Notes under the pieces: model-generated
The model's database searches: none
Told to the model about the DNA's origin: nothing
The model's input: the letters and a program-made list of their open reading frames with translations, nothing else
Part shown: positions 3,869 to 62,093 of the stretch, in pieces
Position numbering within the stretch: position 1 is the stretch's first letter
Layout of the letters: each line of letters opens with the position of its first letter
Made by a program: the position numbers and the translations under genes
NCBI GenBank assembly: GCA_947568835.1
Contig: OX387609.1
Coordinates: 16,389,208 to 16,453,207, forward strand
Length of the DNA: 64,000 nt
Source of the DNA: Protonemura montana
Taxonomy: Eukaryota > Arthropoda > Insecta > Plecoptera > Nemouridae
Reading direction: 5' to 3'

Positions 3869-4025
3869 AGAAACTGTGCGATTGTTTTTAGACTCATATC
3901 TACTTGATTTAGCCTTAGCGTTAGTTTTAACAAAAACTATTTTAACTTGGTTTTGAATGCGAAGTAAAGGACGACAAAATTTCCCAACGTTTTGTAGATA
4001 AACGAAATTTAGTTATCTTATTATC

Positions 4026-4332
4026 AACACTAACCGTCTCAAAAATTGATGCCCAAACGCCGACTCGAACCCTGATCTCCACCTGTCGCCGGTGTTGCTC
4101 TAACCAATTGAGCTACTTGGACCCCGATCTCCACCTGTCGTGGGTGTTGCTCTAACCAATTGAGCTACTTGGACCCCGATCTCCACCTGTCGTGGGTGTT
4201 GCTCTAACCAATTGAGCTACTTGGACCCCGATCTCCACCTGTCGCGGGTGATGCTCTAACCAATTGAGCTACTTGGACCCCGATCTCCACCTGTCACGGG
4301 TGTTGCTCTGAACCATTGAGCTACTTGGACAC
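4026..4332 (-). mobile_element. tRNA-headed SINE-like element, minus strand, with about 5 tandem heads
   Basis: Read on the minus strand this has several 52-bp units containing GTAGCTCAATTGGTTAGAGC (tRNA D-arm and A box), then a terminal unit running into CCCGTTTGGGCATCAATTTT and GAGACGGTTAGTGTTGATAA. The last part is the common tail of the family. The element faces a plus-strand copy starting about 15 bases away, giving a head-to-head inverted pair. Confidence 0.85.
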
Positions 4333-4344
4333 ATCTCAAAAAGC

Positions 4345-4612
4345 CAGTGTCCTAGTAGCTCAATTGGTTAAAGCAACACCCGCGACAGGTGGAGATCAGG
4401 GTCCAAGTAGCTTAATTGGTTAGAGCAATACCCGCGACAGGTGGAGATCGGGGTCCAAGTAGCTCAATTGGGTAGAGCAACACCCGCGACAGGTGAAGAT
4501 CGGGGTTCTAATCCCCGTTTGGGCATCAATTTTTAAAAAAGACGGTTAAAGTGTTGATAATAATAAAATACCCCGCGCATTGGAAGCGTTTGCAATTTAA
4601 ATAAGATTTCAT
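4345..4612 (+). mobile_element. tRNA-headed SINE-like element, plus strand, 3 tandem heads
   Basis: Three 52-bp head units (A box TAGCTCAATTGG) are followed by the tail GGGCATCAATTTTT, GACGGTTAAAGTGTTGATAA, TACCCCGCGCATTGGAAGCG and TTTAAATAAGATTTCATC. It is the mirror partner of the preceding minus-strand copy. The tail landmarks let other copies in the window be recognised. Confidence 0.87.
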
Positions 4613-4996
4613 CATAATAAATTTAGTTGTCCTTTATTTAGCATTCAAAATCCATTTCAAATAGTTTTTGTTAAAGAAACCTGTGTGTTGCAGTTTCTAT
4701 TACCACAACAAAATGTATTATTATATGTGTTATCTTGCAGTGCTTGGTAGAGTAGCATAACTAGGTATCCCCCCTCCTTTTCCACACACTATAGAAGAGG
4801 TCTGAAAAAGATTACACAAGTCTACTGTTTCTGAATCGCACACATTTCTGTACGTTCACTTGCAAGTGCTGAAAAAGATACAAAAAAAAGTATGATTGCT
4901 AGAAATAAACAGTTCTTTGCGATTAAGTAATTATTCGAGATCGCAGAAGGCGATCCAAGGTGAAAAATGACATGTAGATGTTTTCAGGTACAAATT

Positions 4997-5188: not shown

Positions 5189-5462
5189 TGTGTGTAGGAT
5201 TTAGTTTCTTAGAAGCTGACAGAAAATCTTTGTTTTCACTCAGTAAGGGAAGGTGGTACATTGTGTGGTGGATTTAGTTTCTTAGAAGCTGACAGAAAAT
5301 CTTTGTTTTCACTCAGTAAGGGAAGGTGGTACATTGTGTGGTGGATTTAGTTTCTTAGAAGCTGACAGAAAATCTTTGTTTTCACTCAGTAAGGGAAGGT
5401 GGTACATTGTGTGGTGGATTTAGTTTCTTAGAAGCTGACAGAAAATCTTTGTTTTCACTCAC
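5123..5462. repeat. 73-bp tandem array, small locus (about 4.6 copies)
   Basis: The unit contains GGATTTAGTTTCTTAGAAGC, TGACAGAAAATCTTTG and TTTTCACTCAGTAAGGGAAG followed by GTGGTACATTGTGTGG. The first copy is continuous with a unique minus-strand ORF, which makes this the likely source locus for the much larger array at 9623-14480. Confidence 0.95.
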
Positions 5463-9622: not shown

Positions 9623-12600
9623 CAGTAAGGGAAGGTGGTACATTGTGTGGTGGATTTAGTTTCTTAGAAGCTGACAGAAAATCTTTGTTTTCACTCAGTA
9701 AGGGAAGGTGGTACATTGTGTGGTGGATTTAGTTTCTTAGAAGCTGACAGAAAATCTTTGTTTTCACTCAGTAAGGGAAGGTGGTACATTGTGTGGTGGA
9801 TTTAGTTTCTTAGAAGCTGACAGAAAATCTTTGTTTTCACTCAGTAAGTGAAGGTGGTACATTGTGTGTTGGATTTAGTTTCTTAGAAGCTGACAGAAAA
9901 TCTTTGTTTTCACTCAGTAAGGGAAGGTGGTACATTGTGTGGTGGATTTAGTTTCTGAGAAGCTGACAGAAAATCTTTGTTTTCACTCAGTAAGGGAAGG
10001 TGGTACATTGTGTGGTGGATTTAGTTTCTTAGAAGCTGACAGAAAATCTTTGTTTTCACTCAGTAAGGGAAGGTGGTACATTGTGTGTAGGATTTAGTTT
10101 CTTAGAAGCTGACAGAAAATCTTTGTTTTCACTCAGTAAGGGAAGGTGGTACATTGTGTGGTGGATTTAGTTTCTTAGAAGCTGACAGAAAATCTTTGTT
10201 TTCACTCAGTAAGGGAAGGTGGTACATTGTGTGGTGGATTTAGTTTCTTAGAAGCTGACAGAAAATCTTTGTTTTCACTCAGTAAGGGAAGGTGGTACAT
10301 TGTGTGGTGGATTTAGTTTCTTAGAAGCTGACAGAAAATCTTTGTTTTCACTCAGTAAGGGAAGGTGGTACATTGTGTGGTGGATTTAGTTTCTTAGAAG
10401 CTGACAGAAAATCTTTGTTTTCACTCAGTAAGGGAAGGTGGTACATTGTGTGTTGGATTTAGTTTCTTAGAAGCTGACAGAAAATCTTTGTTTTCACTCA
10501 GTAAGGGAAGGTGGTACATTGTGTGGTGGATTTAGTTTCTTAGAAGCTGACAGAAAATCTTTGTTTTCACTCAGTAAGGGAAGGTGGTACATTGTGTGGT
10601 GGATTTAGTTTCTTAGAAGCTGACAGAAAATCTTTGTTTTCACTCAGTAAGGGAAGGTGGTACATTGTGTGGTGGATTTAGTTTCTTAGAAGCTGACAGA
10701 AAATCTTTGTTTTCACTCAGTAAGGGAAGGTGGTACATTGTGTGGTGGATTTAGTTTCTTAGAAGCTGACAGAAAATCTTTGTTTTCACTCAGTAAGGGA
10801 AGGTGGTACATTGTGTGGTGGATTTAGTTTCTTAGAAGCTGACAGAAAATCTTTGTTTTCACTCAGTAAGGGAAGGTGGTACATTGTGTGTAGGATTTAG
10901 TTTCTTAGAAGCTGACAGAAAATCTTTGTTTTCACTCAGTAAGGGAAGGTGGTACATTGTGTGGTGGATTTAGTTTCTTAGAAGCTGACAGAAAATCTTT
11001 GTTTTCACTCAGTAAGGGAAGGTGGTACATTGTGTGGTGGATTTAGTTTCTTAGAAGCTGACAGAAAATCTTTGTTTTCACTCAGTAAGGGAAGGTGGTA
11101 CATTGTGTGTAGGATTTAGTTTCTTAGAAGCTGACAGAAAATCTTTGTTTTCACTCAGTAAGGGAAGGTGGTACATTGTGTGGTGGATTTAGTTTCTTAG
11201 AAGCTGACAGAAAATCTTTGTTTTCACTCAGTAAGGGAAGGTGGTACATTGTGTGGTGGATTTAGTTTCTTAAAAGCTGACAGAAAATCTTTGTTTTCAC
11301 TCAGTAAGGGAAGGTGGTACATTGTGTGGTGGATTTAGTTTCTGAGAAGCTGACAGAAAATCTTTGTTTTCACTCAGTAAGGGAAGGTGGTACATTGTGT
11401 GGTGGATTTAGTTTCTTAGAAGCTGACAGAAAATCTTTGTTTTCACTCAGTAAGGGAAGGTGGTACATTGTGTGTAGGATTTAGTTTCTTAGAAGCTGAC
11501 AGAAAATCTTTGTTTTCACTCAGTAAGGGAAGGTGGTACATTGTGTGGTGGATTTAGTTTCTTAGAAGCTGACAGAAAATCTTTGTTTTCACTCAGTAAG
11601 GGAAGGTGGTACATTGTGTGGTGGATTTAGTTTCTTAGAAGCTGACAGAAAATCTTTGTTTTCACTCAGTAAGGGAAGGTGGTACATTGTGTGGTGGATT
11701 TAGTTTCTTAGAAGCTGACAGAAAATCTTTGTTTTCACTCAGTAAGGGAAGGTGGTACATTGTGTGGTGGATTTAGTTTCTTAGAAGCTGACAGAAAATC
11801 TTTGTTTTCACTCAGTAAGGGAAGTTGGTACATTGTGTGTTGGATTAAGTTTCTTAGAAGCTGACAGAAAATCTTTGTTTTCACTCAGTAAGGGAAGGTG
11901 GTACATTGTGTGGTGGATTTAGTTTCTTAGAAGCTGACAGAAAATCTTTGTTTTCACTCAGTAAGGGAAGGTGGTACATTGTGTGGTGGATTTAGTTTCT
12001 TAGAAGCTGACAGAAAATCTTTGTTTTCACTCAGTAAGGGAAGGTGGTACATTGTGTGGTGGATTTAGTTTCTTAGAAGCTGACAGAAAATCTTTGTTTT
12101 CACTCAGTAAGGGAAGGTGGTACATTGTGTGGTGGATTTAGTTTCTGAGAAGCTGACAGAAAATCTTTGTTTTCACTCAGTAAGGGAAGGTGGTACATTG
12201 TGTGGTGGATTTAGTTTCTTAGAAGCTGACAGAAAATCTTTGTTTTCACTCAGTAAGGGAAGGTGGTACATTGTGTGGTGGATTTAGTTTCTTAGAAGCT
12301 GACAGAAAATCTTTGTTTTCACTCAGTAAGGGAAGGTGGTACATTGTGTGGTGGATTTAGTTTCTTAGAAGCTGACAGAAAATCTTTGTTTTCACTCAGT
12401 AAGGGAAGGTGGTACATTGTGTGGTGGATTTAGTTTCTTAGAAGCTGACAGAAAATCTTTGTTTTCACTCAGTAAGGGAAGGTGGTACATTGTGTGGTGG
12501 ATTTAGTTTCTTAGAAGCTGACAGAAAATCTTTGTTTTCACTCAGTAAGGGAAGGTGGTACATTGTGTGGTGGATTTAGTTTCTTAGAAGCTGACAGAAA

Positions 12601-14480
12601 ATCTTTGTTTTCACTCAGTAAGGGAAGGTGGTACATTGTGTGGTGGATTTAGTTTCTTAGAAGCTGACAGAAAATCTTTGTTTTCACTCAGTAAGGGAAG
12701 GTGGTACATTGTGTGGTGGATTTAGTTTCTTAGAAGCTGACAGAAAATCTTTGTTTTCACTCAGTCAGGGAAGGTGGTACATTGTGTGGTGGATTTAGTT
12801 TCTTAGAAGCTGACAGAAAATCTTTGTTTTCACTCAGTAAGGGAAGGTGGTACATTGTGTGGTGGATTTAGTTTCTTAGAAGCTGACAGAAAATCTTTGT
12901 TTTCACTCAGTAAGGGAAGGTGGTACATTGTGTGGTGGATTTAGTTTCTTAGAAGCTGACAGAAAATCTTTGTTTTCACTCAGTAAGGGAAGGTGGTACA
13001 TTGTGTGGTGGATTTAGTTTCTTAGAAGCTGACAGAAAATCTTTGTTTTCACTCAGTAAGGGAAGGTGGTACATTGTGTGGTGGATTTAGTTTCTTAGAA
13101 GCTGACAGAAAATCTTTGTTTTCACTCAGTAAGGGAAGGTGGTACATTGTGTGGTGGATTTAGTTTCTTAGAAGCTGACAGAAAATCTTTGTTTTCACTC
13201 AGTAAGGGAAGGTGGTACATTGTGTGGTGGATTTAGTTTCTTAGAAGCTGACAGAAAATCTTTGTTTTCACTCAGTAAGGGAAGGTGGTACATTGTGTGT
13301 TGGATTTAGTTTCTTAGAAGCTGACAGAAAATCTTTGTTTTCACTCAGTAAGGGAAGTTGGTACATTGTGTGGTGGATTTAGTTTCTTAGAAGCTGACAG
13401 AAAATCTTTGTTTTCACTCAGTAAGGGAAGGTGGTGCATTGTGTGGTGGATTTAGTTTCTTAGAAGCTGACAGAAAATCTTTGTTTTCACTCAGTAAGGG
13501 AAGGTGGTACATTGTGTGGTGGATTTAGTTTCTTAGAAGCTGACAGAAAATCTTTGTTTTCACTCAGTAAGGGAAGGTGGTACATTGTGTGGTGGATTTA
13601 GTTTCTTAGAAGCTGACAGAAAATCTTTGTTTTCACTCAGTAAGGGAAGTTGGTACATTGTGTGTTGGATTTAGTTTCTTAGAAGCTGACAGAAAATCTT
13701 TGTTTTCACTCAGTAAGGGAAGGTGGTACATTGTGTGGTGGATTTAGTTTCTTAGAAGCTGACAGAAAATCTTTGTTTTCACTCAGTAAGGGAAGGTGGT
13801 ACATTGTGTGGTGGATTTAGTTTCTTAGAAGCTGACAGAAAATCTTTGTTTTCACTCAGTAAGGGAAGGTGGTACATTGTGTGGTGGATTTAGTTTCTTA
13901 GAAGCTGACAGAAAATCTTTGTTTTCACTCAGTAAGGGAAGGTGGTACATTGTGTGGTGGATTTAGTTTCTTAGAAGCTGACAGAAAATCTTTGTTTTCA
14001 CTCAGTAAGGGAAGGTGGTACATTGTGTGGTGGATTTAGTTTCTTAGAAGCTGACAGAAAATCTTTGTTTTCACTCAGTAAGGGAAGGTGGTACATTGTG
14101 TGGTGGATTTAGTTTCTTAGAAGCTGACAGAAAATCTTTGTTTTCACTCAGTAAGGGAAGGTGGTACATTGTGTGGTGGATTTAGTTTCTTAGAAGCTGA
14201 CAGAAAATCTTTGTTTTCACTCAGTAAGGGAAGGTGGTACATTGTGTGGTGGATTTAGTTTCTTAGAAGCTGACAGAAAATCTTTGTTTTCACTCAGTAA
14301 GGGAAGGTGGTACATTGTGTGGTGGATTTAGTTTCTTAGAAGCTGACAGAAAATCTTTGTTTTCACTCAGTAAGGGAAGGTGGTACATTGTGTGGTGGAT
14401 TTAGTTTCTTAGAAGCTGACAGAAAATCTTTGTTTTCACTCAGTAAGGGAAGTTCGTACATTGTGGGTCGGATTTAGTTT
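9623..14480. repeat. 73-bp tandem array, large locus (about 66 copies)
   Basis: Head-to-tail copies of the same unit as at 5123-5462 show very low divergence. Rare diagnostic variants include GTGTGTAGG or GTGTGTTGG for GTGTGGTGG, TCTGAG for TCTTAG, and GAAGTTGG for GAAGGTGG. The last unit decays at about 14450-14480 into unique sequence. On the minus strand every unit contains a pyrimidine-rich TTTTCTGTCAG that resembles a 3' splice site. 73 is not a multiple of 3, so there is no through-reading ORF. Confidence 0.98.
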
Positions 14481-17851: not shown

Positions 17852-18160
17852 TTACTCAAACGTAGTCCATTGTTCGGACACTCGCAGCTGCGAATCTTCG
17901 ACTCCGAGCTCTGCTGAAGACGACGACCCCGGTCTGTCTGCTTCGGATGGGTGTGCTTCTGGTGCATGTCTATCATCGATATCATGACTAGATCCACACT
18001 CATCCAGGGCGGGTTGACCCATCATCTTAGCCGCCCACAAAACTCGGAAGACGGCGTCCTCAGAGACCACGGCGTCCTCAGAGACCACGGCGTCCTCAGA
18101 GACCACGGCGTCCTCAGAGACCACGGCGTCCTCAGAGACCACGGCGTCCTCAGAGACCAC
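17852..18160 (-). CDS. Candidate acidic frame with VSEDAV repeats, unidentified
   Basis: The minus-strand frame begins with six VSEDAV repeats and continues into a Ser/Glu/Asp-rich tail ending in TAA at 17852. Composition is plausible for a disordered nuclear protein, but the 18-bp repeat keeps several frames open by itself and no splice sites or domain fix it. Low confidence. Confidence 0.2.
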   Translation of the reverse strand: MVSEDAVVSEDAVVSEDAVVSEDAVVSEDAVVSEDAVFRVLWAAKMMGQPALDECGSSHDIDDRHAPEAHPSEADRPGSSSSAELGVEDSQLRVSEQWTTFE

Positions 18161-27857: not shown

Positions 27858-28556
27858 TTAATTTGTCCAAGATATATTGTAAAGGTAGCTTATGCATGCG
27901 GTAAGGAGCAACAAACGGAACGATATGTAACCTAAACGAGTTGCTCCGCTCATTGTCCACTTAATTGGGGTGAGCTCTAGCGGACTCGGATTTACTTTGC
28001 CAAATTTGTCAGAGAATTTAGCATCCGGCTTAATATTTCTACACCCGGGGTCATAATGTCTGTAATTATTACACTTATTATCGTAGCAATAACACATGTA
28101 ACGCATCTCTGACATTGCAACAATATCTAAAAATGGAACATCCTTTCCCCAATGCTTGAATCTTTGAAACTCCTTCGGTGCCTTATCTTCTTGTCCATCG
28201 CAAGGCGCTTTACCGGTGGCTTCGTTTTCATCATAAAAGCATCCTCGTTCGAGATAAATGCGGTTATAATATGTTGAGTTATCTCCACCGACATGACCCA
28301 TGCGTGTGCTGCAATTCATGCGAGCTTCCAAATAGCATCCCACTGCACGCTTGCCGTTCTTTGCAGGACAAGTCGTTGGAAGTGTTCCGTTTGGTCCTCG
28401 CAGAAAGCAAGGGTTTTTGTTAAGACGCATTGTTTTACACTGATAGCAAATTTTCTCGGGTGGAGCCGATAAAACTACGCTTGCCAAACTGACTAAAACT
28501 ACGACAATGGATACTGAAACAATAAAAGCATGGAAACAAATCATTTCTGTACCCAC
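27858..28556 (-). CDS. Ly6/uPAR-like secreted, probably GPI-anchored protein
   Basis: A 232-codon frame. A hydrophobic N-terminal segment (VSIVVVLVSLASVVLSAPP) looks like a signal peptide with cleavage after LSA. It is followed by a cysteine-rich ectodomain starting CYQCK, with spaced cysteines ending in CYCYDNKCNNY, the C-x-C plus CN pattern that closes Ly6/three-finger folds. Two or three N-x-S/T sites are present. The C terminus is a hydrophobic stretch (LGYISFRLLLLTACISYLYN) suggesting a GPI-anchor signal. There is no catalytic domain; likely role is a cell-surface ligand or receptor modulator. The start is uncertain: CTTTTATTGTTTCAG at the 5' end of the frame resembles a splice acceptor, so the true exon may begin near 28517 with an unseen upstream exon. 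A minus-strand AATAAA is at 27751-27756. Confidence 0.7.
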   Translation of the reverse strand: MGTEMICFHAFIVSVSIVVVLVSLASVVLSAPPEKICYQCKTMRLNKNPCFLRGPNGTLPTTCPAKNGKRAVGCYLEARMNCSTRMGHVGGDNSTYYNRIYLERGCFYDENEATGKAPCDGQEDKAPKEFQRFKHWGKDVPFLDIVAMSEMRYMCYCYDNKCNNYRHYDPGCRNIKPDAKFSDKFGKVNPSPLELTPIKWTMSGATRLGYISFRLLLLTACISYLYNISWTN

Positions 28557-29336: not shown

Positions 29337-29765
29337 TATCGTTGAGTGTAGGTTCTAGGTAGAGTTTCAACGTCAATGTTACAGTCTCTGCGTGAAAGAT
29401 GGCCGCCAAATGACTACCTTACCGACAAAAATGCAGAGTACCGGAACATAACGTTAAGTGGAGCCACTGTCGTATGAAATTTAATTTCGATATTTCTCGT
29501 AGGTTACTCGCTTTTTAATATTGTTACGTGTATATCAATCGTTGAGGTAAACATTGACGGTGATTTTTTGAGCATGAAAAGTCTCAAAAGCGAGTTAACC
29601 TACGAGAAATATCGAAATTAAATTTCATACGACAGTGGCTCCACTTAACGTGACGTTCCGGTACTCTGCATTTTTGTCGGTAAGGTAGTCATTTGGCGGC
29701 CATCTTTCACGCACAGACTGTAACATTGACGTTGAAACTCTAACTAGAACCTACACTTAACGATA
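29337..29765 (+). mobile_element. Foldback MITE, copy 2
   Basis: This copy reads from TATCGTTGAGTGTAGGTTCT to its imperfect reverse complement AGAACCTACACTTAACGATA. The loop orientation is the same as copy 1. Both ends are flanked by CTATA-containing sequence, which could reflect a target site, but the exact duplication is unclear. The arms contain AAGATGGCCGCCAAATG, which resembles a YY1 motif. Confidence 0.87.
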
Positions 29766-30419: not shown

Positions 30420-33400
30420 CTAGCCCGACAGCGGATCTCCGACGGGAACGGGAGCCGGTATAACGTTTGCCGCCAGCGCCTCCCGTTCGAGTGAAGCCAG
30501 CTGCGTGCGAAGTCGCGCGACCTTCAGCCGCAGCTCCTTGTCGCGGTCGCGCAACGCGGCGATACGATTGGCCGCCGCTTTCTGCGGTGCGGGATCCACG
30601 ACCCAGCGGAGGTACAGCTCCGACCACAAAGTCTGCAACGTTAAAAAAAAAACCAACTTCACAATCAGCAATCAATTTATGAGACGGTTATAGTGTTGAT
30701 AATAATAAAATACCCCGCGCATTGCAAGCGTTTGCAATTTAAATAAGATTTCATCCTAATACAGCAACGAATCCAACGTCAAATTGGAGTTATTCGAGTT
30801 TGACAGGTTGTGACGTGGTATAGCGTCACTAGAATCAGAGTAACTGTGAGTATTCACAGCCTCTTGGTTCTACTCCTTGGAGATCCATCATTCTCATCAA
30901 ATACACTGAAATCGTCTCAAAAAGTAAGTGTCCAAGTAGCTCAATTAGTTAGAGCAACACCCGCGACAGGTGGAGATCGAGGTTCGAGTCCCCGTTTGGG
31001 CATCTATTTTTGAGACGGTTATAGTGTTGTTAATAATAAAATACCCCGCGCATTGCAAGCTTTTGCAATTTAAATAAAATTTTATCTAAAAGCAATGCGA
31101 ACTATTCATATTCACAATCAGCATTCAATATGAATTCGGAAACGAATGCCACTCGTCTCAATCACATAACCGCACTTTCACCTCCGCCACTCACCAGGCT
31201 GACTGGAGCCACCGAGGGCCAGAGCACGCGACCGTTGGGCTCGTATATTGGGCTGATGAGAGTCTCCAGCAGCTCCGGTCGATTCAAGTACGACCACAAC
31301 GAGACCGTGCGTTGGGGCAACTTCAAGAACACTCGGTCAGCCTCGCTCTGGCCTAGGAATGTGCCTGGAACACAGCATGGCATAGGAGGTTCAATGGTAG
31401 CTCCAACGTTTGGTAGCCATGAAGATGCTGAGATCGCCTGACAGAGCTTCTCAATTCTGCTATCTTATGTTACCACGGGTATATCATGGCCTAGCATAGG
31501 AGGTTCAATGGAAGATTCAACGTTTGATAGCCATGGAGATGCTGAGATCACCTGACAGAGCTTCTCAATTCTGCTATCTTATGTTACCACGGGTATATCA
31601 TGGCCTAGCATAGGAGGTTCAATGGAAGATTCAACGTTTGGTAGCCATGGAGATGCTGAGATCACCTGACAGAGCTTCTCAATTCTGCTATCTTATGTTA
31701 CCACGGGTATATCATGGCCTAGCATAGGAGGTTCAATGGAAGATTCAACGTTTGATAGCCATGGAGATGCTGAGATCACCTGACAGAGCTTCTCAATAGT
31801 TCACAAAGTACTCACCAAACTGCGAAGAGTACGAGTGTTCGAATAGGAGACCGAGCATGTGGGTGTTGAACTCGAAGCTGGCCGGGAACTGGTGATGCAC
31901 CTGGTGCAAACAGTCAAGGAACAGCAAGAACGTGGGGGCGGAGTCTCGAGGGCGGCCTGCGGCGGGGGCGTACGGCCCCCTGGCGTGTCGAGCCGGGAAC
32001 GGGTGTCCAGCCTGCAGCCATTCCCGCTCGACCAACGCCTGGAGCCTGACAGACGAACAAGTTGTTTTATTATTAGTGTTCACAATGACAAAATACCCCA
32101 CGCATCGCAAGCGTTTGCAATTTAATTAAGATTTCATCTAGGAACGAGTTGATTTGCTTTGGCAATCAAAACTGTTCGAAATTACACTACCTCGGCTACG
32201 TTCATAAATAGCTTAACAAATATCTTGCTGATTGTTTTTCGACTCATGTCTACTTGATTTATCCTTAGCTTTAGTTTTAACAAAAACTGAATTTAGGAAG
32301 CTTGAACTTGGTAATTGTTATAATTTTATGTGGTTCTTTTGTTATTGGAAAATTGTCAGGACTGCTCAAACCCTTGATAAAGTAACAGGTACAAGTTACG
32401 AAACGTTGGGAAATTTAGTTGTTCTTCACTTAGCATTGAAAACCCAGTTGAAATAGTTTTTGTTAATATCTTGCCGTATTTAAATTGATGCTCAAAACTG
32501 TTTTATCCCTGCATATCAACTGATTCTTTTGTTCAAGCTATTTTTAAATTACTTAAGATTTGATTAAGCGTTATTAAGGTTAGAAAAGAAGACATGAATC
32601 GAAACATCATAATAAAGGTAAGCAACGTTGCAAGGGGGCTGTGTTTGGGTGGATGACCGCTGGAGTTAAAACCCTTGCAAGAGATCAGTAAGAGATTCTC
32701 ATTAGATGAGAAAGAATGATCAGTTAGAAACAGTTAGAATGAAAGATACTGGAAATCAGCGAAGGGGTCTGAAGAACAGGTCAGAGTTCTAGTTGGAGAG
32801 CTACGTACCCCCTGACAGTTCGACAGTCGGGGTTGAGAATCACCTGCGACAGGGAGGTGACCAAGAGTGTGGCATCGAGACCCTCTGACCCGTGGACCAG
32901 CACAGAAGCACCTTCCTGTAAAACAAGGTCATAATCAGGTACAAGGTTTTTATTATTTGTTGTGTCCAAGATTTAGCACCAAATCGTTTGGCGTGTTGGA
33001 AACACCGGTCCTCGTGACATCACCGAAGTTAAGCAACACTGCGCTGGGTCAGGTATTGGATGGGTGACCATCATACACATGACCAGTTCTGTTTGGGAGA
33101 GAGGTTGGAGGGATGAAAGTTAAGCAACACTGCGCTGGGTCAGTTATTGAATGGATGACCATCATACACATGACCAGTTCTGTTCGGGAGAGAGGTTGGA
33201 GGGATGAAAGTTAAGCAACACTGCACTGGGTCAGGTATTAGATGGGTGACCATCATACACATGACCAGTTCTGTTTGGTAGAGAGGTAGGAGGGATGAAA
33301 GTTAAGCAACACTGCGCTGGGTCAGGTACTGGATGGGTGACCATCATACACATGACCAGTTCTGTTTGGGAGAGAGGTTGGAGGGATGAAAGTTAAGCAA

Positions 33401-36400
33401 CACTGCACTGGGTCAGGTATTGGATGGGTGACCATCATACACATGACCAGTTCTGTTTGGGAGAGAGGTTGGAGGGATGAAAGTTAAGCAACACTGCACT
33501 GGGTCAGGTATTGGATGGGTGACCATCATACACATGACCAGTTCTGTTTGGTAGAGAGGTTGGAGGGATGAAAGTTAAGCAACACTGCGCTGGGTCAGGT
33601 ACTGGATGGGTGACCATCATACACATGACCAGTTCTGTTTGGGAGAGAGGTTGGAGGGATGAAAGTTAAGCAACACTGCGCTGGGTCAGGTATTGGATGG
33701 GTGACCATCATACACATTACCAGTTCTGTTTGGGAGAGAGGTTGGAGGGATGAAAGATAAGCAACACTGCGCTGGGTCAAGTATTGGATGGGTGACCATC
33801 ATACACACAACCAGTTCTGTTTGGGAGAGAGGTTGGAGGGATAAAAGTTAGTACAGCAACTTCACTCGCCTTGCTAATCAACCTCTCGACAGCATGGATT
33901 TGTGGAGGAATCCTGTTGTTCGAGTTGTACCGTCCTTCGGAAGGGACGTTAAGCTGGTGGTCCCCTTGGTGCTCTTCGACAGGAGTAGGCTACGTGCTGG
34001 CACCAGGTTTCCCCTCCTCCCTTCTAGGCTAGGCTAGGTTCATCATCATCCTCATCATTCACCGACGCCATTAGACCAGTGCCGCATGGCCAGATGTGAA
34101 ACACAACAAATCAATGGGATTTGGCTCAGGTTCACTGACCTGATCCAAGCACTGGGCCACCAAACAAGCACAGTTGAGTGTGTCCTTGATGTGAGTCATC
34201 CACCCCGAAGAGTCAAGCCTCGACAGCCACCGATCCGTGGACAGACCAGTGTCGTTGCAAGCTGGAAACAAAACAATCTCTCACGTAACTGTTTCACCTC
34301 GAAACACCTGAGCAAAATAATTGACATAAAACTCATTATAACCTCAGTAAACAACAAACTCTTATGTTGGATCTCAACTATAAGTTGGATCTCTAGCTCA
34401 CAGAAACATCTGAATTTCACTGCATGAGATTGGAAGTCGTCATGGCAACAGTTTCAACAAACATTCAAATAGGAGTCGAGATTTTGCTAAAACCAGATCT
34501 TAGTGAACCTAATGTTAAAAATCTCCTCAACCTAGATCAGTAAATTGGCAGAGTTTTCAATTTAAATGAGGTTTCATTTAATTATCTTTGTTGTTGTTTT
34601 ACCGTCAACGAGTCTCGAGAATGACTCGAGGAGTACGTGATGTCTGTCGATTGGTTTACTAACTCGACGCCACTGCGGATAATGCATCTCCACCTCAAAC
34701 CCACCGCCACGAGACTGAAACAATAAAACACAGTTCACGCATTCGTACGACTTACAAACAACAATAATCTGAATATAAAACGAAGTGCCAGCGAGCTTTG
34801 GTCGGCATCTTCAGGACTCTGCCAACGTTGACGCTGAAGAAATGACGACTACACATAAACCAGCCAATTAGTTATGTAACCATTAGGATGAAATCTTAAT
34901 TAAATTGCAAACGCTTGCAATGCGCGGGGTATTTCATTGTTATCAACACTTAAACCGTCTCAAAAATTGATGCCCAAACGCGGACTTGGACCCCGATCTC
35001 CACCTGTCACGGGTGTTGCTCTAACCAATTGAGCTACTTGGACCCCGATCTCCACCTGTCCCGGGTGTTGCTCTAACCAATTGAGCTACTTGGACCCCGA
35101 TCTCCACCTGTTGCGGGTGATGCTCTAACCAATTGAGCTACTTGGACCCCGATCTCCACCTGTCGCGGGTGTTGCTCTAACCAATTGAGCTACTTGGACC
35201 CCGATCTCCACCTATCGCGGGTGTTGCTCTAACCAATTGAGCAACTTGGACCCCAATCTCCACCTGTCGCGGGTGTTACTCTAACCAATTGAGCTACTTG
35301 GACCCCGATCTCCACCTGTCGCGGGTGTTGCTCTAACCAATTAAGCTACTTGGACCCCGATCTCCACCTGTTGCGGGTGTTGCTCTAACCAATTGAGCTA
35401 CTTGGACCCCGATCTCCACCTGTCGCGGGTGTTACTCTAACCAATTGAGCTACTTGGACCCCGATCTCCACCTGTCGCGGGTGTTGCTCTAACCAATTGA
35501 GCTACTTGGACACTGGTTTTTTGAGACGATTTTAGTTTAGAATCACAGTTCTCCAAGGAGTAGAACTAAGAAGAACCAGTCCTTGGAGATCCATCATTCT
35601 CATCAAATACACTAAAATCGTCTCAAAAAGCCAGTGTCCAAGTAGCTCAATTAGTGTACAGGCACGTACCTTGGCGGCCTGCGCGAGGCCTTGCGCGCGC
35701 GTGTCTACGATGTAGCCTCGTTTACCAGGACCGAGCACAGAGTTCAGCAGTCGTTCGTCCTCCTTACATCGCTTCGATCCTGGGCCCGTCATTGGCTGCC
35801 CACTGCGCAGCAGACAACCCTGAACCAATCACAGCACACCATCAACACAACGTGCATAGCACACAAGGATCTTAAAACTTGGTTATCATATGGGACTGCA
35901 CACAATCAACACAACGTGTATAGCACACAAGGATCTTAAAACTTGGTTATCATATGGGACCGCACACAATCAACACAACGTGCACAGCACACAAGGATCT
36001 TAAAACTTGGTTATCATATGAGACTGCACACAATCAACACAACGTGCACAGCACACAAGGATCTTAAAACTTGGTTAGCATATGAGACTGCACACAATCA
36101 ACACAACGTGCATAGCACACAAGGATCTTAAAACTTGGTTATCATATGAGACTGCACACAATCAACACAACGTGCATAGCACACAAGGATCTTAAAACTT
36201 GGTTATCATATGGGACTGCACACAATCAACACAACGTGCATAGCACACAAGGATCTTAAAACTTGGTTATCATATGGGACTGCACACAATCAACACAATG
36301 TGCACAGCACACAAGGATCTTAAAACTTGGTTATCATATGGGACTGCACACAATCAACACAACGTGCATAGCACACAAGGATCTTAAAACTTGGTTATCA

Positions 36401-42400: not shown

Positions 42401-45400
42401 ACTCCCAGTAAATACTCTTTGCAAAACTTTAAAATGCGTTTAGCAACGACAATTCTTAATCTCCCTACAACCTGCACTATAAAACCTCGAAAAGCAAAGT
42501 TTATTTCGAAAAGTGGGTAGTCCGTGTATAGTAGGGGTTCGTATGATCTGGATGGGTATGCAATGGTTTTTCCAAGCAGTCAACGTACTCATTCAACCCA
42601 CCCGAGGAAAGCGCGATTGCAGCAACCCCAACACCAAGTAGTAGTTTTAATGTTGATATGAATGAACTATCTATGAACTATAACTAGTGAATAGACTAAA
42701 GTTAAAGAATTAAAAACACCCCCCACCCAGTACCTAACCTAGTGATGACCGCAGCATTTGGAACTCACAGCCTGATAACCCAGCGTATACCCAAAACAAA
42801 ATGTAGGTCTACACCACTGGTTATTCCCTCTTCACACATAGTCCCCTCCTTATCTGTGAAAAAATGTATAACCACCTCCCGACCCATATCAAAGAATCCT
42901 CCAAACATAGCTCCTTCAATTCAAACCTTCGAAACTTCTTCCTCCAAAACCCTTTCTACAGCCTCGAAGAATACATCACCACAACATCTCACCAACCATC
43001 TCTCCTCTAACTTCAAAATCCAAACTTTCCCCATAATCATGACCTGTTGGCCTGCATGACCTGCATGACCTGCATGCCCTGCATGACTTGCATGACCAGC
43101 ATGACCAGCATGACCTGCATGTCCTGCATGACCAGCATGACCTGCATGACCTGCATGTCCTGCATGACCAGCATGACCTGCATGACCTGCATGACCAGCA
43201 TGACCTGCATGACCTGCATGACCAGCATGACCTGCATGACCAGCATGACCTCCATGACCAGCATGACCTGCATGACCTGCATGACCAGCATGACCTCCAT
43301 GGCCTGCATGACCAGCATGACCTGCATGACCTGCATGACCTGCATGACCAGCATGACCAGCATGACCAGCATGACCAGCATGACCAGCATGACCTGCATG
43401 ACCTGCATGACCTGCATGACCTGCATGACCAGCATGACCTGTATGACCTGCATGACCTGCATGACCTGCATGACCAGCATGACCTACATGACCAGCATGA
43501 CCTGCATGACCTGCATGACCTGCATGACCAGCATGACCAGCATGACCTGCATGACCTGCATGTCCTGCATGACCTGCATGACCAGCATGACCTGCATGAC
43601 ATGCATGACCTGTTGGCCTGCATGACCTCTATGACCTGCATGACCTGAATGACCTGCATGACCAGCATAACCTGCATGACCAGCATGAACTGCATGACCA
43701 GCATGACCTGCATGTCCTGCATGACCTGCATGACCTGCATGACCAGCATGACCTGCATGTCCTGCATGACCTGCATGACCTGCATGTCCTGCATGACCTG
43801 CATGACCAGCAAGACCAGCATGACCTGCATGACCTGCATGACCAGCATGACCTGCATGTCCTGCATGACCTGCATGACCAGCATGACCTGCATGACCTGC
43901 ATGACCAGCATGACCAGCATGACCTCCATGACCAGCATGACCTGCATGACCTGCATGACCAGCATGACCTCCATGGCCTGCATGACCAGCATGACCTGCA
44001 TGACCTGCATGACCTGCATGACCAGCATGACCAGCATGACCAGCATGACCAGCATGACCAGCATGACCTGCATGACCTGCATGACCTGCATGACCTGCAT
44101 GACCAGCATGACCTGTATGACCTGCATGACCTGCATGACCTGCATGACCAGCATGACCTACATGACCAGCATGACCTGCATGACCTGCATGACCTGCATG
44201 ACCAGCATGACCAGCATGACCTGCATGACCTGCATGTCCTGCATGACCTGCATGACCAGCATGACCTGCATGACATGCATGACCTGTTGGCCTGCATGAC
44301 CTCTATGACCTGCATGACCTGAATGACCTGCATGACCAGCATAACCTGCATGACCAGCATGAACTGCATGACCAGCATGACCTGCATGTCCTGCATGACC
44401 TGCATGACCTGCATGACCAGCATGACCTGCATGTCCTGCATGACCTGCATGACCTGCATGACCTGCATGACCTGCTTGACCAGCATGACCTGCATGACCA
44501 GCATGACCTGCATGACCTGCTAATTACTATTGTCACTTTATTGTTAACAAGTTATTGTAAAAAGCAAATACAAATACTATGTACTTGACCGTCGCTTCAA
44601 ATTAAATAACATAACCTTTCCACTCCCAACTCACCGAGTCAAGTTTTGTTACCCCGTTCTCACTTCTTTCCGCCGACGGCCCTCGTCGCTGCCGAGTACG
44701 TAAGTAATGGCAAACAGTACATTTTGTACACAATTAGCTTGCATTTGATGCGGAAATATTACTATAAAAAAATATTTAGGATCGCATCGATGTGAAAATA
44801 CCGCACTTTTTTCACAAACTTTATTATGATTTCTGTGCCAATGTATTTTTGACAATAAACAAAGATCAGTAAATTCCTCCCTCTTCGCTATCAAAGAGAT
44901 ACGTAGTTTCATAGCTCATACAAATAACCTTGCAGCGGGGAAGAATGTTTGCACTAACCAATAAGAGCAGAGAACTCTGTTTCGGGACGGAACGCAGTCC
45001 AGCCGTCTTCCAGAACAGGGTACATCGGGCTGTAGAAGAACGGGTAGAGCAGCATTGGTTCGTCTAAACAAACACACATTTATAATTAACAAACACATTT
45101 CATGCTTCTGTAATAATAATAATCATATTATTGTCTCAATTGGTTAGAAGAACACCCACGACAGGTGGAGATCAGGGTTCAAGTAGCTCAATTGGCTAGA
45201 GCAACACCCGTGACAGATCGGGGTTCAAGTAGCTCAATTGGTAAGAGCAACACCTGTGACAGGTGGAGATCGGGGTCCAAGTAGCTCAATTGGTTAAGAG
45301 CAACACCCGCGACTGGTGGAGATCGGGGTTCAAGTAGCTCAATTGGTTAGAGCAATACCCGCGACAGGTGGAGATCAGGGTCCAAGTAGCTTAATTGGCT

Positions 45401-47119
45401 AGAGCAACACCCGTGACAGATCGGGGTTCAAGTAGCTCAATTGGTAAGAGCAACACCTGTGACAGGTGGAGATCGGGGTCCAAGTAGCTCAATTGGTTAA
45501 GAGCAACACCCGCGACTGGTGGAGATCGGGGTCCAAGTAGCTCAATTGGTTAGAGCAACACCCGCGACTGGTGGAGATCGGGGTCCAAGTAGCTCAATTG
45601 GTTAGAGCAACACCCGCGACTGGTGGAGATCGGGGTCCAAGTAGCTCAATTGGTTAGAGCAACACCCGCGACTGGTGGAGATCGGGGTCCAAGTAGCTCA
45701 ATTGGTTAGAGCAACACCCGCGACAGGTGGAGATCGGGGTCCAAGTAGCTCAATTGGTTAGAGCAACACCCGCGACAGGTGGAGATCGGGGTCCAAGTAG
45801 CTCAATTGGTTAGAGCAACACCCGCGACAGGTGGAGATCGGGGTCCAAGTAGCTCAATTGGTTAGAGCAACAACCGCGACTGGTGGAGATCGGGGTCCAA
45901 GTAGCTCAATTGGTTAGAGCAACACCCGCGACAGGTGGAGATCGGGGTCCAAGTAGCTCAATTGGTTAAGAGCAACACCCGTGACAGGTGGAGATCGGGG
46001 TCCAAGTAGCTCAATTGGTTAAGAGCAACACCCGTGACAGGTGGAGATCGGGGTCCAAGTAGCTCAATTGGTTAGAGCAACACCCGCGACAGGTGGAGAT
46101 CGGGGTCCAAGTAGCTCAATTGGTTAGAGCAACACCCGCGACAGGTGGAGATCGGGGTCCAAGTAGCTCAATTGGTTAGAGCAACACCCGCGACAGGTGG
46201 AGATCGGGGTTAGATTCCTCGTTTGGGCATCAATTTTTGAGACGGTTATTAGTGTTCATAATAATATAATACATCTTAGTAATAAAACTTGGAACCAGTC
46301 TTCTGGTAATAAAACAACATATATTATAACAACATAATAGAGGGTAGAAATAATACACACTCAACAATAGATTAATGCGTAATTAGCAATTAAACCATTT
46401 GTTAGGTAATGACACAGAAGAAAGACTTAGGTAATGGTTTCTTGCCAGCTGCTTTCCCCTGGGAATCCTGATCTCTGGAAACTTAGTCCCTGGAATCCTG
46501 ATCCCTGCAAATACGTCACAAAGGTAGTCTTGGTAGGTACCGATGGAGGAAAGACGCTCTATGGACGTCGCCACCTTGACGAACTCATCAGCTGAGTTGA
46601 TGTCCAGCTGGATCACGCGGAGGTCTTTGCATTTGATGACGAGACTGCCACCGTTTATCCCATTTGGCTTCCTCTCAATCAGGTCTACGTTGCGATGCAG
46701 GAGCTAAGACACACCACAAGAAATATCTGGTTATTTTGAGCCAAGGGGCAATGGGAAGTTACCATTCCTTGCCTGATTCAATCAAGTATGGCCTGTGTAT
46801 TGTTTGCTTATAACTGAAATATAAATACAGTTAGCACCTACTTTTGATAACTTCTATCTGAATCATTAATCTTTTTTGGATAATGTAAGAAAACAGACCT
46901 ATCAAAGGAGTTTAAAACTATTTCTATGGCTACTTTTTTTAGTAGCTCATCGTAAAGCAGTTGTGGGTTTACCCAGAGCTCTTCAACTCCGTGTTTCCGC
47001 GAGGAGAGTATAAGGTGGTGGCCCGTGATGCACAGAGTTCCGTCGACGGGTTTTTGAAACGGACAGTGCAGCACTACATTGTCGAGCTTTGGTGTGAGAA
47101 TATACTCAGCAAACTCCAT
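30420..47119 (-). CDS. MTMR9: Myotubularin-related protein 9 (pseudo-phosphatase), complete, 11 exons
   Basis: MTMR9 is a catalytically inactive myotubularin that binds and activates active partners (MTMR6/7/8 in vertebrates) acting on PI3P and PI(3,5)P2 at endosomes. Exons: 47119-46973, 46703-46541, 45063-44959, 37741-37572, 35819-35670, 34714-34603, 34261-34140, 32915-32809, 32045-31816, 31364-31195 and 30632-30420. All are GT-AG and all phases join, giving 562 residues (human about 549). The PH-GRAM region (about 1-110) opens MEFAEYILTPKLDNVVLH. The phosphatase-like domain includes PFFYSPMYPVLEDGW, NREFRVCPSYP, RRCKED-type KRCKEDERLLNSVLG, HYPQWRRV, EREWLQAGHPF and LWPSVAPVSL. The signature loop reads VHGSEGLDAT (331-339): the catalytic Cys is Gly332 and the Arg is Ala338, so it is dead as in the family. 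A C-terminal coiled coil (about 510-545) fits heterodimerisation. Introns hold many tandem arrays, but all exons are intact. Confidence 0.96.
30664..30762 (+). mobile_element. tRNA-headed SINE-like element, tail fragment (MTMR9 intron 10)
   Basis: Tail landmarks GAGACGGTTATAGTGTTGAT, TACCCCGCGCATTGCAAGCG and TTTAAATAAGATTTCATC are present without the tRNA head. It lies about 30 bases from the exon 11 acceptor. Confidence 0.85.
30890..31088 (+). mobile_element. tRNA-headed SINE-like element, single-head full copy (MTMR9 intron 10)
   Basis: This is the clearest unit copy. A leader (TCTCATCAAATACACTGAAA, TCGTCTCAAAAAG) precedes a 73-nt tRNA-like segment at 30930-31002, followed by the shared tail. 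The tRNA-like part has a 7-bp acceptor stem (GTCCAAG with TTTGGGC, including G-T pairs), a D-arm (GCTC/GAGC), an anticodon-like arm (CACC/GGTG) lacking U33, and a T-arm with TTCGAGT. The A box is TAGCTCAATTAG and the B box GGTTCGAGTCC. The missing U33 argues against a functional tRNA gene. Confidence 0.88.
31383..31800. repeat. 114-bp tandem array (about 3.7 copies), MTMR9 intron 9
   Basis: The unit starts CATAGGAGGTTCAATGG and ends GGGTATATCATGGCCTAG. It fills intron 9 almost edge to edge: the array starts about 20 bases from the exon 10 acceptor and ends about 16 bases from the exon 9 boundary. Confidence 0.93.
32062..32139 (+). mobile_element. tRNA-headed element tail fragment (MTMR9 intron 8)
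   Basis: A diverged tail with TACCCCACGCATCGCAAGCG and TTTAATTAAGATTTCATC, starting about 17 bases from the exon 9 acceptor. It is followed by a copy of interspersed repeat R at about 32245-32470. Confidence 0.75.
32985..34030 (+). mobile_element. 5S rRNA-derived SINE with tandemly amplified promoter (MTMR9 intron 7)
   Basis: The head contains GAAGTTAAGCAACACTGCGC, GGGTCAGGTA and TTGGATGGGTGACCA, matching in order the A box, intermediate element and C box of the 5S rRNA internal control region (TFIIIA-type promoter). A 91-bp unit holding all three is repeated nine times (33026-33844). A single body follows with CGTCCTTCGGAAGGGACGTT and GGTGCTCTTCGACAGGAGTA, then a TCATCATCATCC-like tail near 34040. 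SINEs with 5S-derived heads are the SINE3 class (established). The body resembles conserved SINE core modules, but I cannot assign which. No ORF. Confidence 0.82.
33026..33844. repeat. 91-bp array of 5S internal control regions (9 copies)
   Basis: Nine exact-period copies (start points 33026, 33117 and so on to 33754) each span the 5S-like A box, intermediate element and C box plus an unrelated 40-base spacer (CATCATACACATGACCAG, GGAGAGAGGTTGGAGGGATG). Differences are scattered single bases. Confidence 0.95.
34885..35530 (-). mobile_element. tRNA-headed SINE-like element with about 10 tandem heads (MTMR9 intron 5)
   Basis: On the minus strand a short leader (TCGTCTCAAAAAACCAGTG) is followed by about ten 52-bp units (GTCCAAGTAGCTCAATTGGT, AGAGCAACACCCGCGACAGG), then CGTTTGGGCATCAATTTTTG, GAGACGGTTTAAGTGTTGAT and the tail ending AATTAAGATTTCATCC. 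Confidence 0.92.
35580..35660 (+). mobile_element. Truncated head of tRNA-headed element abutting an exon (MTMR9 intron 5)
   Basis: Leader TCTCATCAAATACACTAAAA, TCGTCTCAAAAAGCCAGTG and the first half of a tRNA head stop at CAATTAGTGTACAGG, about 10 bases from the exon 5 donor site (exon ends at 35670). It points opposite to the neighbouring 34885-35530 copy. Confidence 0.8.
35846..37535. repeat. 64-bp tandem array (about 26 units), MTMR9 intron 4
   Basis: The unit is AATCAACACAACGTGCATAG, CACACAAGGATCTTAAAACT, TGGTTATCATATGGGACTGC and ACAC. Between about 36735 and 37190 several units carry an extra 25 bases (AATCAACACAACGTGCAAAG plus CACAC), a duplication of the unit start, giving an 89-bp composite unit. 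The array runs from about 25 bases outside the exon 5 acceptor to about 37 bases from the exon 4 donor, so it is essentially the whole intron. Confidence 0.97.
38459..38534. repeat. 14-bp tandem repeat (5 copies)
   Basis: GCATATAAAGGTTT is repeated five times; the first copy has a small insertion. Confidence 0.93.
41202..41350. repeat. 71-bp tandem duplication (2.1 copies)
   Basis: GAGCGAATGTGAGCGAAAGG through ACAGATAGTAAACTTGAGA is repeated at a 71-base interval, with a third copy started at 41344. It is an example of the earliest stage of array formation in this window. Confidence 0.93.
43040..44522. repeat. 9-bp tandem array (about 165 units) with higher-order structure, MTMR9 intron 3
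   Basis: The basic unit is CATGACCTG with a common variant CATGACCAG and rarer CATGTCCTG, CATGACCTC and CATGGCCTG. All six frames are open for long runs (MTCMTS, HDLHDQ, MQVMLV and others) purely because the unit is 9 bp. An interruption, TGTTGGCCTG, marks larger blocks at 43045, 43611 and 44285, and the order of variants after it is repeated between blocks. Confidence 0.97.
45125..46262 (+). mobile_element. tRNA-headed SINE-like element with about 21 tandem heads (MTMR9 intron 2)
   Basis: This is the largest head array in the window: about twenty-one units of about 52 bp, each with TAGCTCAATTGGTTAGAGCA and GGTGGAGATCGGGG, ending in TAGATTCCTCGTTTGGGCAT and a tail stub GAGACGGTTATTAGTG. A few units are shortened (lacking the GGTGGA portion) or lengthened by one base (GGTTAAGAGC). 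The order of such variants is repeated at 45200-45330 and 45400-45530, indicating block duplication. Confidence 0.93.
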
Positions 47120-48530: not shown

Positions 48531-49179
48531 ATGGCGACAAAAACCAATTCTGCGGTTGACACAAGGGCTGAATTGGCCGAATTGGTCAAAAGAAAAGCCG
48601 AGATTGCGGTAATTACTAGTAACAGCTCATGATTAGCCATTTTAAATGTAATTTTTAGTGCTAACTCTTGTCCATACAACTGCCTACTATGAATTTAAGT
48701 ATTATGAACAGCGGTTATTGAAGGTTAGGCTAAGGTTGATGTGTCAAGTAAAACTTAATATGGTGATATTTCTCTTTCAGGAGACGTTGGCAAACTTAGA
48801 GAGACAAATCTACGCATTCGAGGGCAGCTACTTGGAGGACACCCAGTGCTACGGTAACATAATTCGTGGCTGGGATCGATACATCTCGTCCAACAAAAGC
48901 AGCAACAGTAAAGCAGACAAACGCAACCGCAAGTTCAAAGAAGCGGAGCGATTGTTCAGCAAGTCTAGCATCACTTCGATGGCGGCTGTCAGTGGATTGG
49001 CTGACGCAAAGGAAAGCGAGAGTGAATCTCAAAGTAGCGAAGAAGAAGGCGGTATAGGCCAAGAAACTGGGAAAAGCCACGTAACTACGAGCCATGAACC
49101 ACGGCCAGAGACTCCAAGCAAAGAGAAAGCCCGGGGAAGTGCGAAAAAGAGTTCCAGTAAAAAGCCGAGGCACCGTTGA
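48531..49179 (+). CDS. MEAF6: MEAF6/Eaf6, HAT-complex subunit, complete, 2 exons
   Basis: MEAF6 (Eaf6) is a small scaffold subunit of the NuA4/TIP60 and the MOZ/MORF and HBO1 histone acetyltransferase complexes in the nucleus. Exon 1 is 48531-48608 (ATGGCGAC start) and exon 2 is 48781-49179; the GT-AG intron is in phase 0. The joined product has 158 residues (human about 190-200). The hallmark block runs through [46 protein letters not shown] and [15 protein letters not shown]: a coiled coil followed by the conserved FEGSYLEDT motif. The C terminus is Ser/Glu-rich then Lys/Arg-rich ([11 protein letters not shown]), as in relatives. It is transcribed away from MTMR9. AATAAA lies at 49275-49280. 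A frame starting inside the intron at 48658 is an artefact of retained intron. Confidence 0.96.
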
Positions 49180-55850: not shown

Positions 55851-55931
55851 TGTTTTCACAAAACGTATTATCTTTTTGGAGGAGCTTTACGTTTTAGTCA
55901 AGTTCAGACTCGATTGGGGTGAACTAATACC

Positions 55932-56354
55932 CTTGAGTGTAGGTTATAGGTAGAGAAACAACGTCAATGTTACAGTCTCTGCGTGAAAGATGGCCGCCAA
56001 ATGACTACCTTACCGACAAAAATGCAGAGTACCGGAACATCACGTTAAGTGGAGCCACTGTCGTATGAAACTTAATTTCGATATTTCTCGAAGGTTAACT
56101 CGCTTTTGAGACTTTTCAAGCTTAAAAAATCTCCATCAATGTTTACCTCAACGATTGATATTCACGTAACGATATTAAAAAGTGAGTAACCTACGAGAAA
56201 TATCGAAATTAAATTTCACACGACAGTGGCTCCACTTAACGTGATGTTCCGGTACTCTGCATTTTTGTCGGTAAGGTAGTCATTTGGCGGCCATCTTTCA
56301 CGCAGAGACTGTAACATTGACGTTGTTTCTCTACCTAGAACCTGCACTCAACGA
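55932..56354 (-). mobile_element. Foldback MITE, copy 3 (opposite orientation)
   Basis: It has the same arms as copies 1 and 2, but the loop is inverted: GAGACTTTTCAAGCTT comes first and CACGTAACGATATTAAAAAG last. It lies about 80 bases beyond the 63-bp array. No ORF. Confidence 0.87.
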
Positions 56355-56427
56355 TTATACCACACCTGCAGGCTGGGCTTGCATTCCTTCCCTCTGCAAT
56401 TAGAAGCATTTCTCTACATTTTATTAT

Positions 56428-56572
56428 TAACAACACTATAACCGTCTCAAAAATTGATGGTTCGAGTCCGCGTTTGGGCATCAATTTTTGAGACGGTTAT
56501 AGTGTTGATAATAATAAAATACCCCGCTCATAGCAAGCGTTTGCAATTTAAATCAGATTTCAACCTAATTTC
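56428..56572 (+). mobile_element. tRNA-headed element fragment with terminal hairpin
   Basis: AACACTATAACCGTCTCAAA at 56428 and its reverse complement ending at 56502 form a 28-bp perfect inverted repeat around GTTCGAGTCCGCGTTTGGG (the T-arm part of the tRNA head), followed by the usual tail. The A-box half is missing. Confidence 0.85.

Positions 56573-58120: not shown

Positions 58121-62093
<3,973 letters not shown>

What the first reader, a model, noticed from the sequence alone, without database searches (positions are those of the whole stretch)
45125..46262. Tandem amplification of a tRNA-type Pol III promoter inside a SINE-like family
At least four copies of one dispersed family (4026-4612, 34885-35530, 45125-46262, 58410-59240) carry not one tRNA head but 3 to about 21 head-to-tail copies of its first 52 bases, while the tail occurs once. 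The cut is always in the same place: the T-arm 5' strand (ATCGGGG) is joined to the acceptor 5' strand (TCCAAGTAG). Many junctions read GGGGTTCAAGTAGC, which approximates a B box, so each unit keeps an A box plus a B-box-like sequence. The single-head copy at 30890-31088 shows the ancestral form. A SINE with a variable number of tandem promoter units would be a new architecture, or a repeat-array birth mechanism.
Basis: partly seen in the sequence, partly recalled or inferred. Interest (0 to 1): 0.85.

Follow-up and report, generated by a model that had tools for sequence, protein, structure and literature searches.

The report
Mobile repeats sprouting tRNA-fragment arrays
A common mobile repeat in this probably arthropod genome carries a tRNA-like piece whose first 52 bases have been multiplied into tandem arrays, which looks like a new example of satellite DNA being born inside a mobile repeat rather than a new promoter architecture.

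Summary
The arrays are real. Copies of a dispersed repeat in the window hold 3 to 21 copies of the first 52 bases of a tRNA-like head. The genome (258 Mb, 34 contigs) has 7,021 exact junctions. The cut is constant: of 177 head starts examined, 108 follow the same junction, 68 the normal 5' flank, 1 neither.

The host repeat is SINE-like but odd. It has inverted arms, two fixed ends and target-site duplications of about 9-13 bp. A run of five or more T follows the tRNA in 110 of 123 copies and the element's 5' end lies upstream of the head, so the head is a doubtful promoter for the whole element.

The arrays behave like young satellites: paralogous loci differ in head number (6/4 against 17/8), arrays crowd the ends of contig C1, A boxes show no extra conservation, and 40% of the window is tandem. 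A 5S-like family forms arrays too. SINE-derived satellites are described in reptiles (PMC10702118). I file this as a new variant of a known kind. Transcription and read support are untested.

The parts
45125..46208 (+). Array of 21 tRNA-like heads (52-bp units, two of 46 and four of 53), with internal duplication of multi-unit blocks
46157..46229 (+). Last head of the array, complete enough to be called a tRNA (ARAGORN; Rfam 43.5 bits)
46230..46272 (+). Inverted-arm end (A end) of this copy; no tail (B end) found at the other side
4018..4618 (+). Element with both ends: 5 heads on - (from 4061), 5' flank at 4332, 3 heads on + (4349-4504), tail to 4618
4005..4017 (+). Left target-site duplication, 12 of 13 bases equal to 4619-4631
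4619..4631 (+). Right target-site duplication of the 4018-4618 element
30671..31086 (+). Single-head copy (tRNA 30929-31004) with an extra tail upstream at 30671-30760
34882..35651 (-). Copy with 10 heads on - (34982-35507), tail at the left end, 5' flank repeated inverted at 35580-35651
56418..56569 (+). Headless 152-bp copy: two inverted arms (42 nt, 98% complementary) plus tail
58410..59250 (-). Element with tail inverted at the left (58410-58470), 13 heads on + (58515-59190), arm end at the right
32074..32138 (+). Tail-only fragment of the family
33026..33850 (+). 91-bp array of a second Pol III-type (5S rRNA-like) repeat; 5S match 32978-33098, 49 bits

Best explanation
This is a dispersed retroposon-like family (SINE-like, with inverted arms) in whose tRNA-like core a 52-base segment has become a short satellite. 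Shown: copies have two recurrent ends in inverted orientation and target-site duplications; the segment runs from tRNA base 1 to base 52; unit number varies between loci and between paralogous copies of one locus. Inferred: a first duplication arose by slippage or unequal exchange between the imperfect repeat GTCCAAGT (tRNA start) and GTTCGAGT (the T loop, i.e. the B box) exactly 52 bases apart; unequal exchange and conversion then lengthened, shortened and mixed the arrays, mainly near chromosome ends, where segments are also copied between chromosomes. The promoter boxes are carried along because they lie in the segment, not because more promoters are selected.
For: Constant junction and 52-bp period. 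The two 8-base stretches are 52 bases apart in the single-head unit. Three junction spellings across that stretch, GTCCAAG 7,021, GTTCAAG 720, GTTCGAG 106, and arrays in both head variants fit more than one event or exchange. L053 and L054 have flanks 96-99% identical but 6/4 and 17/8 heads. Chromosome-end loci L099, L100, L101 (C2, C5, C13; 22-165 kb from contig ends) are 99.2-99.6% identical; L100 has 6 heads and then the 5' flank, the other two at least 7. Nearest 52-mer lies in the same array 32% of the time against 9% expected. On C1, 6 array clusters lie in 0-1.5 Mb and 6 in 1.5-28.2 Mb against 10 and 90 exact arm matches (Fisher P = 0.002, from capped lists). Target-site duplications: 24 of 39 elements score 9 or more against 0.9% of shuffled flank pairs. 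Tandem arrays cover 40% of the window. A box not more conserved, P = 0.21.
Against: The 8-base similarity (6 of 8) is not among the 25 best direct repeats of the unit listed, so it does not by itself explain why only this segment expands. Units of different arrays are nearly as alike (3.8 differences per 52) as units of one array (3.2), so spread of ready-made arrays is also possible. In 4018-4618 the first - head is of variant 1 and the other four of variant 2, and L053/L054 are mixed, so arrays are not simply grown from their own first head. Multi-head copies with target-site duplications (window 4018-4618, L068, L075) could have inserted as multi-head RNAs. Both end-enrichment lists were cut at 100 places.
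Confidence: 0.68

Rival explanations
1. Multi-head RNAs are the mobile form: a source copy with several heads is transcribed and inserted, so head number is inherited through transposition and extra promoters raise transcription.
For: Multi-head copies with target-site duplications exist (window 4018-4618, L068, L075). Units are almost as similar between as within arrays. Among exact first heads the junction-followed form (41 listed) outnumbers the B-box-followed form (21 listed).
Against: A T5 run follows the tRNA in 110 of 123 copies and should stop Pol III before the tail. The element's 5' end is upstream of the head. Headless copies moved too (L091, L032). Of 63 head runs in loci fetched by arm, flank or tail, 56 are single. 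Paralogous loci changed head number after duplication.
Confidence: 0.14
2. The heads multiply during reverse transcription: the enzyme slips or jumps back from the tRNA start to the B box on its template, and each insertion gets its own number.
For: Copies show many other jumps: inverted arms, doubled tails, joins at shared CGTCTCAAAAA. Identical 52-base step in all arrays.
Against: Head number differs between copies of one insertion. Two- and three-unit blocks inside the 45125 array are themselves duplicated, as expected of DNA-level exchange.
Confidence: 0.12
3. The arrays are assembly artefacts.
For: No reads could be examined.
Against: 10,225 heads followed by a junction at up to 3 mismatches on many contigs, units that differ from each other within arrays, only 34 contigs for 258 Mb, arrays of about 0.2 to 3 kb.
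Confidence: 0.02

Closest known systems
SINE-derived satellites (sSats) of scaled reptiles, PMC10702118 (abstract, passages, Background and Discussion read)
   Same: Part of a tRNA-related SINE in tandem, with longer terminal units reaching the SINE end; junction shared by many loci; some arrays with mixed units; preference for subtelomeric regions; up to many units per locus.
   Different: There the snake unit is 67 nt from the 3' part of the head with box B plus body; here the unit is tRNA bases 1-52 with the A box and only a B-like join. Host element here has inverted arms and is from a probably arthropod genome. The authors say it is uncertain whether such satellites are restricted to squamates.
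tRNA-related tandem repeats of amphibians (Xenopus OAX/satellite I, Cynops PolIII/TAN, Rana/polIII, Hydromantes Hy/polIII), as described in PMC10702118 Background
   Same: Tandem DNA containing a tRNA-like, Pol III-type sequence.
   Different: Units of about 200 nt or more, whose link to a SINE that paper calls unconfirmed; here the single-head element and the array are both seen.
Helitron-like elements with central tandem repeats (Drosophila DINEs; listed in the table of PMC9659126, passages seen)
   Same: Inverted arms near both ends, a hairpin-forming tail at one end, tandem repeats in the middle (comparison of form recalled).
   Different: Target-site duplications of about 9-13 bp here; Helitron-like elements make none (recalled).
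SVA (SINE-VNTR-Alu) elements of apes (recalled, no call)
   Same: A non-autonomous retroposon with an internal variable-number tandem repeat.
   Different: The SVA repeat is not its promoter-like head; no sequence relation.

Membership tests
SINE-derived satellite (sSat) | Tandem repeat made of part of a SINE | tested here: met
   52-bp units equal tRNA bases 1-52 of the single-head copies
SINE-derived satellite (sSat) | Single-copy SINE sequence at one or both ends of the array | tested here: met
   5' flank before the first head and tRNA 3' half plus arm after the last
SINE-derived satellite (sSat) | Preference for subtelomeric regions | tested here: met
   C1 only, from lists cut at 100 places: 6 and 18 clusters in 0-1.5 and 28.2-31.76 Mb, 6 in 1.5-28.2 Mb; C1 is 33.1 Mb
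SINE-derived satellite (sSat) | Homogeneity rising with array length | not tested
   Too few long arrays could be fetched
tRNA-derived SINE | tRNA-like head with A and B boxes | tested here: met
   ARAGORN 5 tRNA calls, Rfam 36.8-48.8 bits; box consensus recalled
tRNA-derived SINE | Target-site duplications of variable length | tested here: met
   24 of 39 elements score 9 or more against 0.9% of shuffled pairs
tRNA-derived SINE | Pol III transcript from the head can run through the element | tested here: inconclusive
   Sequence argues against it: T5 or longer after the tRNA in 110 of 123 copies and element 5' end upstream of the head; no expression data
tRNA-derived SINE | LINE-derived 3' region | tested here: inconclusive
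   Longest reading frames upstream of six tail-only copies printed and looked at by eye; no family search run on them
tRNA-derived SINE | A-rich or simple-repeat tail | tested here: not met
   Copies end in CATCCTAAT or close to it, no simple repeat; not universal in SINEs (recalled)
Helitron/Helentron-like element | No target-site duplication | tested here: not met
TIR DNA transposon with about 9-bp duplications (Mutator-like) | Symmetric inverted termini and fixed duplication length | tested here: not met
   One end carries about 49 extra bases and duplications vary between 9 and 13 bp by eye

The most novel reading that the evidence does not exclude
Two unrelated Pol III-type sequences of this genome, a tRNA head and a 5S rRNA-like head, have both been multiplied as short units that keep internal promoter boxes, with thousands of units concentrated towards chromosome ends. 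The arrays may serve as docking sites for TFIIIC/TFIIIA-type factors, acting as insulators or chromosome-end organisers, or as promoter arrays making short dsRNA-prone transcripts.
Probability: 0.06. Interest if true: 0.8.

Novelty: new variant of a known kind. Interest (0 to 1): 0.42.

Why it matters
It extends SINE-derived satellites, described in print for reptiles, to what is probably an arthropod, with a unit lying wholly inside the tRNA head. All stages are present in one genome: single-head copies, two- and three-head copies, long arrays, and paralogous loci that differ in head number. That makes the question of how a mobile repeat turns into satellite DNA directly testable by comparing orthologous insertions. 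The parallel 5S-like arrays show that the process is not particular to one family.

Tried and rejected
Helitron/Helentron reading: attractive because of inverted arms, a hairpin near one end and a tandem core, but rejected because the ends are flanked by duplications of about 9-13 bp.

Snap-back copying at each insertion as origin of the inverted arms: arms of one element are more alike than shuffled pairs (0 of 5,000 shuffles reach the observed sum), but the own right arm is the nearest in only 2 of 30 elements (5 of 35 dropped for poor arms). This fits subfamilies with palindromic source copies better.

Selection on the A box: 1.5% non-consensus at six fixed positions against 3.1% at other non-CpG positions, permutation P = 0.21: no support.

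Uniqueness of the 8-base similarity: one search lists 25 better direct repeats in the unit, so similarity alone does not predict the cut.

Partner LINE: only the longest reading frames upstream of six tail-only copies were printed and judged by eye; no reverse transcriptase was recognised, and no family search was run on them. The species was not identified.

A first motif scan missed hits because of a best-match flag; one search replaced it and no count rests.

Dropped before counts: 26 of 98 loci as overlapping. One overlapping pair (L032/L033) was left in; it holds no head start but inflated the T-run count, 112 of 125, recounted without L033 as 110 of 123. The 39 elements were chosen by hand as having both ends.

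Full report
What was checked. The window is bases 16,389,208-16,453,207 of contig C12 (18.23 Mb) of an unnamed eukaryotic genome of 258.5 Mb in 34 contigs. A mir-279 match suggests an arthropod; this was not tested further. Heads per copy are 5 plus 3, 10, 21 and 13. Five complete tRNA-like sequences are called in the window: the single head and the last heads of the arrays (ARAGORN; Rfam 36.8-48.8 bits).

The unit. It is tRNA bases 1-52, from the first acceptor base to the T-arm 5' strand. In 13 arrays 99 of 106 internal units are exactly 52 bases. In the window plus 72 loci (26 of 98 dropped as overlapping), 177 head starts were examined: 108 follow the junction, 68 the normal 5' flank, 1 neither. 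Of the 72 loci, 2 were fetched by the junction itself; the other 70 were fetched by arm, flank or tail, and in these 56 of 63 head runs are single and 7 multiple. The window, with 5 multiple and 2 single runs, is therefore unusually rich.

Genome-wide counts. Exact junction 29-mer GTCCAAG type 7,021, GTTCAAG type 720, GTTCGAG type 106. Heads followed by a junction 10,225, heads followed by the tRNA 3' half 1,121, both at up to 3 mismatches over 64 bases; these patterns are of head variant 2, so variant 1 is under-counted. Arm 4,823, 5' flank with head start 1,607, tail 4,737, each at up to 1 mismatch. Every reversed control gave 0. The tool warns that counts of repeats can be lower bounds, although it calls the pattern counts whole.

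The host element. Comparing loci with a 331-base unit shows two recurrent ends in inverted orientation: one stops near unit position 281-284 (A end), the other at 326-331 (B end...GATTTCATCCTAAT). Cores vary: none, one or two tRNA-like heads in either orientation, doubled tails, or arrays. Flanks of 39 hand-picked two-ended elements carry direct repeats far more often than shuffled pairs: 24 of 39 score 9 or more, against 0.9%. Clean cases read by eye are 9-13 bases long. Together with the variable length this fits target-primed retroposition; that reading is from general knowledge. Two features sit badly with a classical SINE: five or more T follow the tRNA in 110 of 123 copies, and the A end lies upstream of the head, with headless copies (L091, L032) showing the same ends and duplications. 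So the head is probably not the promoter of the mobile RNA, though it could still make short tRNA-like transcripts. No expression data were available.

How the arrays arise. The tRNA start GTCCAAGT and the T loop GTTCGAGT are 6 of 8 alike and 52 bases apart, so slippage or unequal exchange between them gives the observed unit whichever side of the stretch is used. Different spellings at the join and arrays in both head variants suggest that this happened more than once or that arrays exchange units. Against this, many better direct repeats in the unit did not expand. Later change is clearer: L053 and L054, with 96-99% identical surroundings, carry 6/4 and 17/8 heads. Three chromosome-end loci, 99.2-99.6% identical, carry 6 heads in one and at least 7 in the two others. 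In the 45125 array, blocks of units are duplicated. Units are only moderately more alike within arrays than between them (3.2 against 3.8 differences; nearest neighbour in the same array 32% against 9% expected), so spread of ready-made arrays by duplication of chromosome ends also contributes.

Where they are. On C1 (33.1 Mb) array clusters number 6 in 0-1.5 Mb, 6 in 1.5-28.2 Mb and 18 in 28.2-31.76 Mb; exact arm matches number 10 in 0-1.5 Mb and 90 in 1.5-28.2 Mb (Fisher P = 0.002 for the first two zones). Both lists stop at 100 places, so only C1 was judged. The window lies 1.8 Mb from the end of C12, and 40% of it is tandem repeat of many unrelated kinds, so array growth here is general.

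A second family. The 91-bp array at 33026-33850 starts inside a 5S rRNA-like sequence (49 bits). Its junction occurs 25,920 times and the sequence before the first unit 6,073 times, each at up to 2 mismatches. Some of the latter lie 92 bases apart, so not all are first units. Its unit keeps the region of the 5S internal promoter (recalled).

Against a functional reading. A-box positions are not significantly more conserved than others (P = 0.21), and the B-like join is as variable as the rest (4.1% against 4.2%). Most joins carry the spelling that fits a B box worse.

Literature. PMC10702118 (abstract, passages, Background and Discussion read) describes SINE-derived satellites in squamates with shared junctions, SINE ends and subtelomeric preference, and lists older tRNA-related tandem repeats of amphibians. 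PMC9659126 was seen in passages only. Searches of the open PubMed Central library listed no paper, by title and abstract start, on SINE tRNA-head arrays in an arthropod; subscription papers are not covered, so this is weak evidence of absence.

Verdict. A real and well-shared structure, best read as satellite birth inside a SINE-like retroposon: a new variant of a known kind.

Noticed in passing
window 32978-33850: 5S rRNA-like repeat with its own 91-bp tandem array; junction pattern 25,920 times in the genome at up to 2 mismatches.
   Followed up: partly
G000:C1 near 20.98 and 22.42 Mb: A tRNA-head array and a 5S-like array lie 5.3 kb apart at both places, suggesting that they ride in one larger duplicated or mobile block.
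   Followed up: no
window 1-64000: 25,700 of 64,000 bases (40%) are in tandem arrays found by TRF, with periods such as 9, 39, 52, 63, 64, 68, 73, 84, 86, 91 and 114.
   Followed up: partly
window 5123-5461 and 9623-14480: Two separate arrays of what looks like the same 73-bp unit, about 4 kb apart.
   Followed up: no
window 55918-56097 / 56187-56366 and 29400-29506 / 29596-29702: Two long inverted repeats (180 nt at 93% and 107 nt at 98%), each with 89 bases between the arms, possibly copies of another foldback-type repeat.
   Followed up: no
window 17932-18018: mir-279 microRNA precursor match, 66.9 bits, above its gathering score.
   Followed up: no
window 48658-49179: Reading frame with a NuA4 histone acetyltransferase subunit domain, Pfam PF09340, E 3e-24.
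   Followed up: no
window 27858-28556: 232-residue cysteine-rich reading frame with a possible signal peptide by eye; no Pfam match at 0.001.
   Followed up: partly
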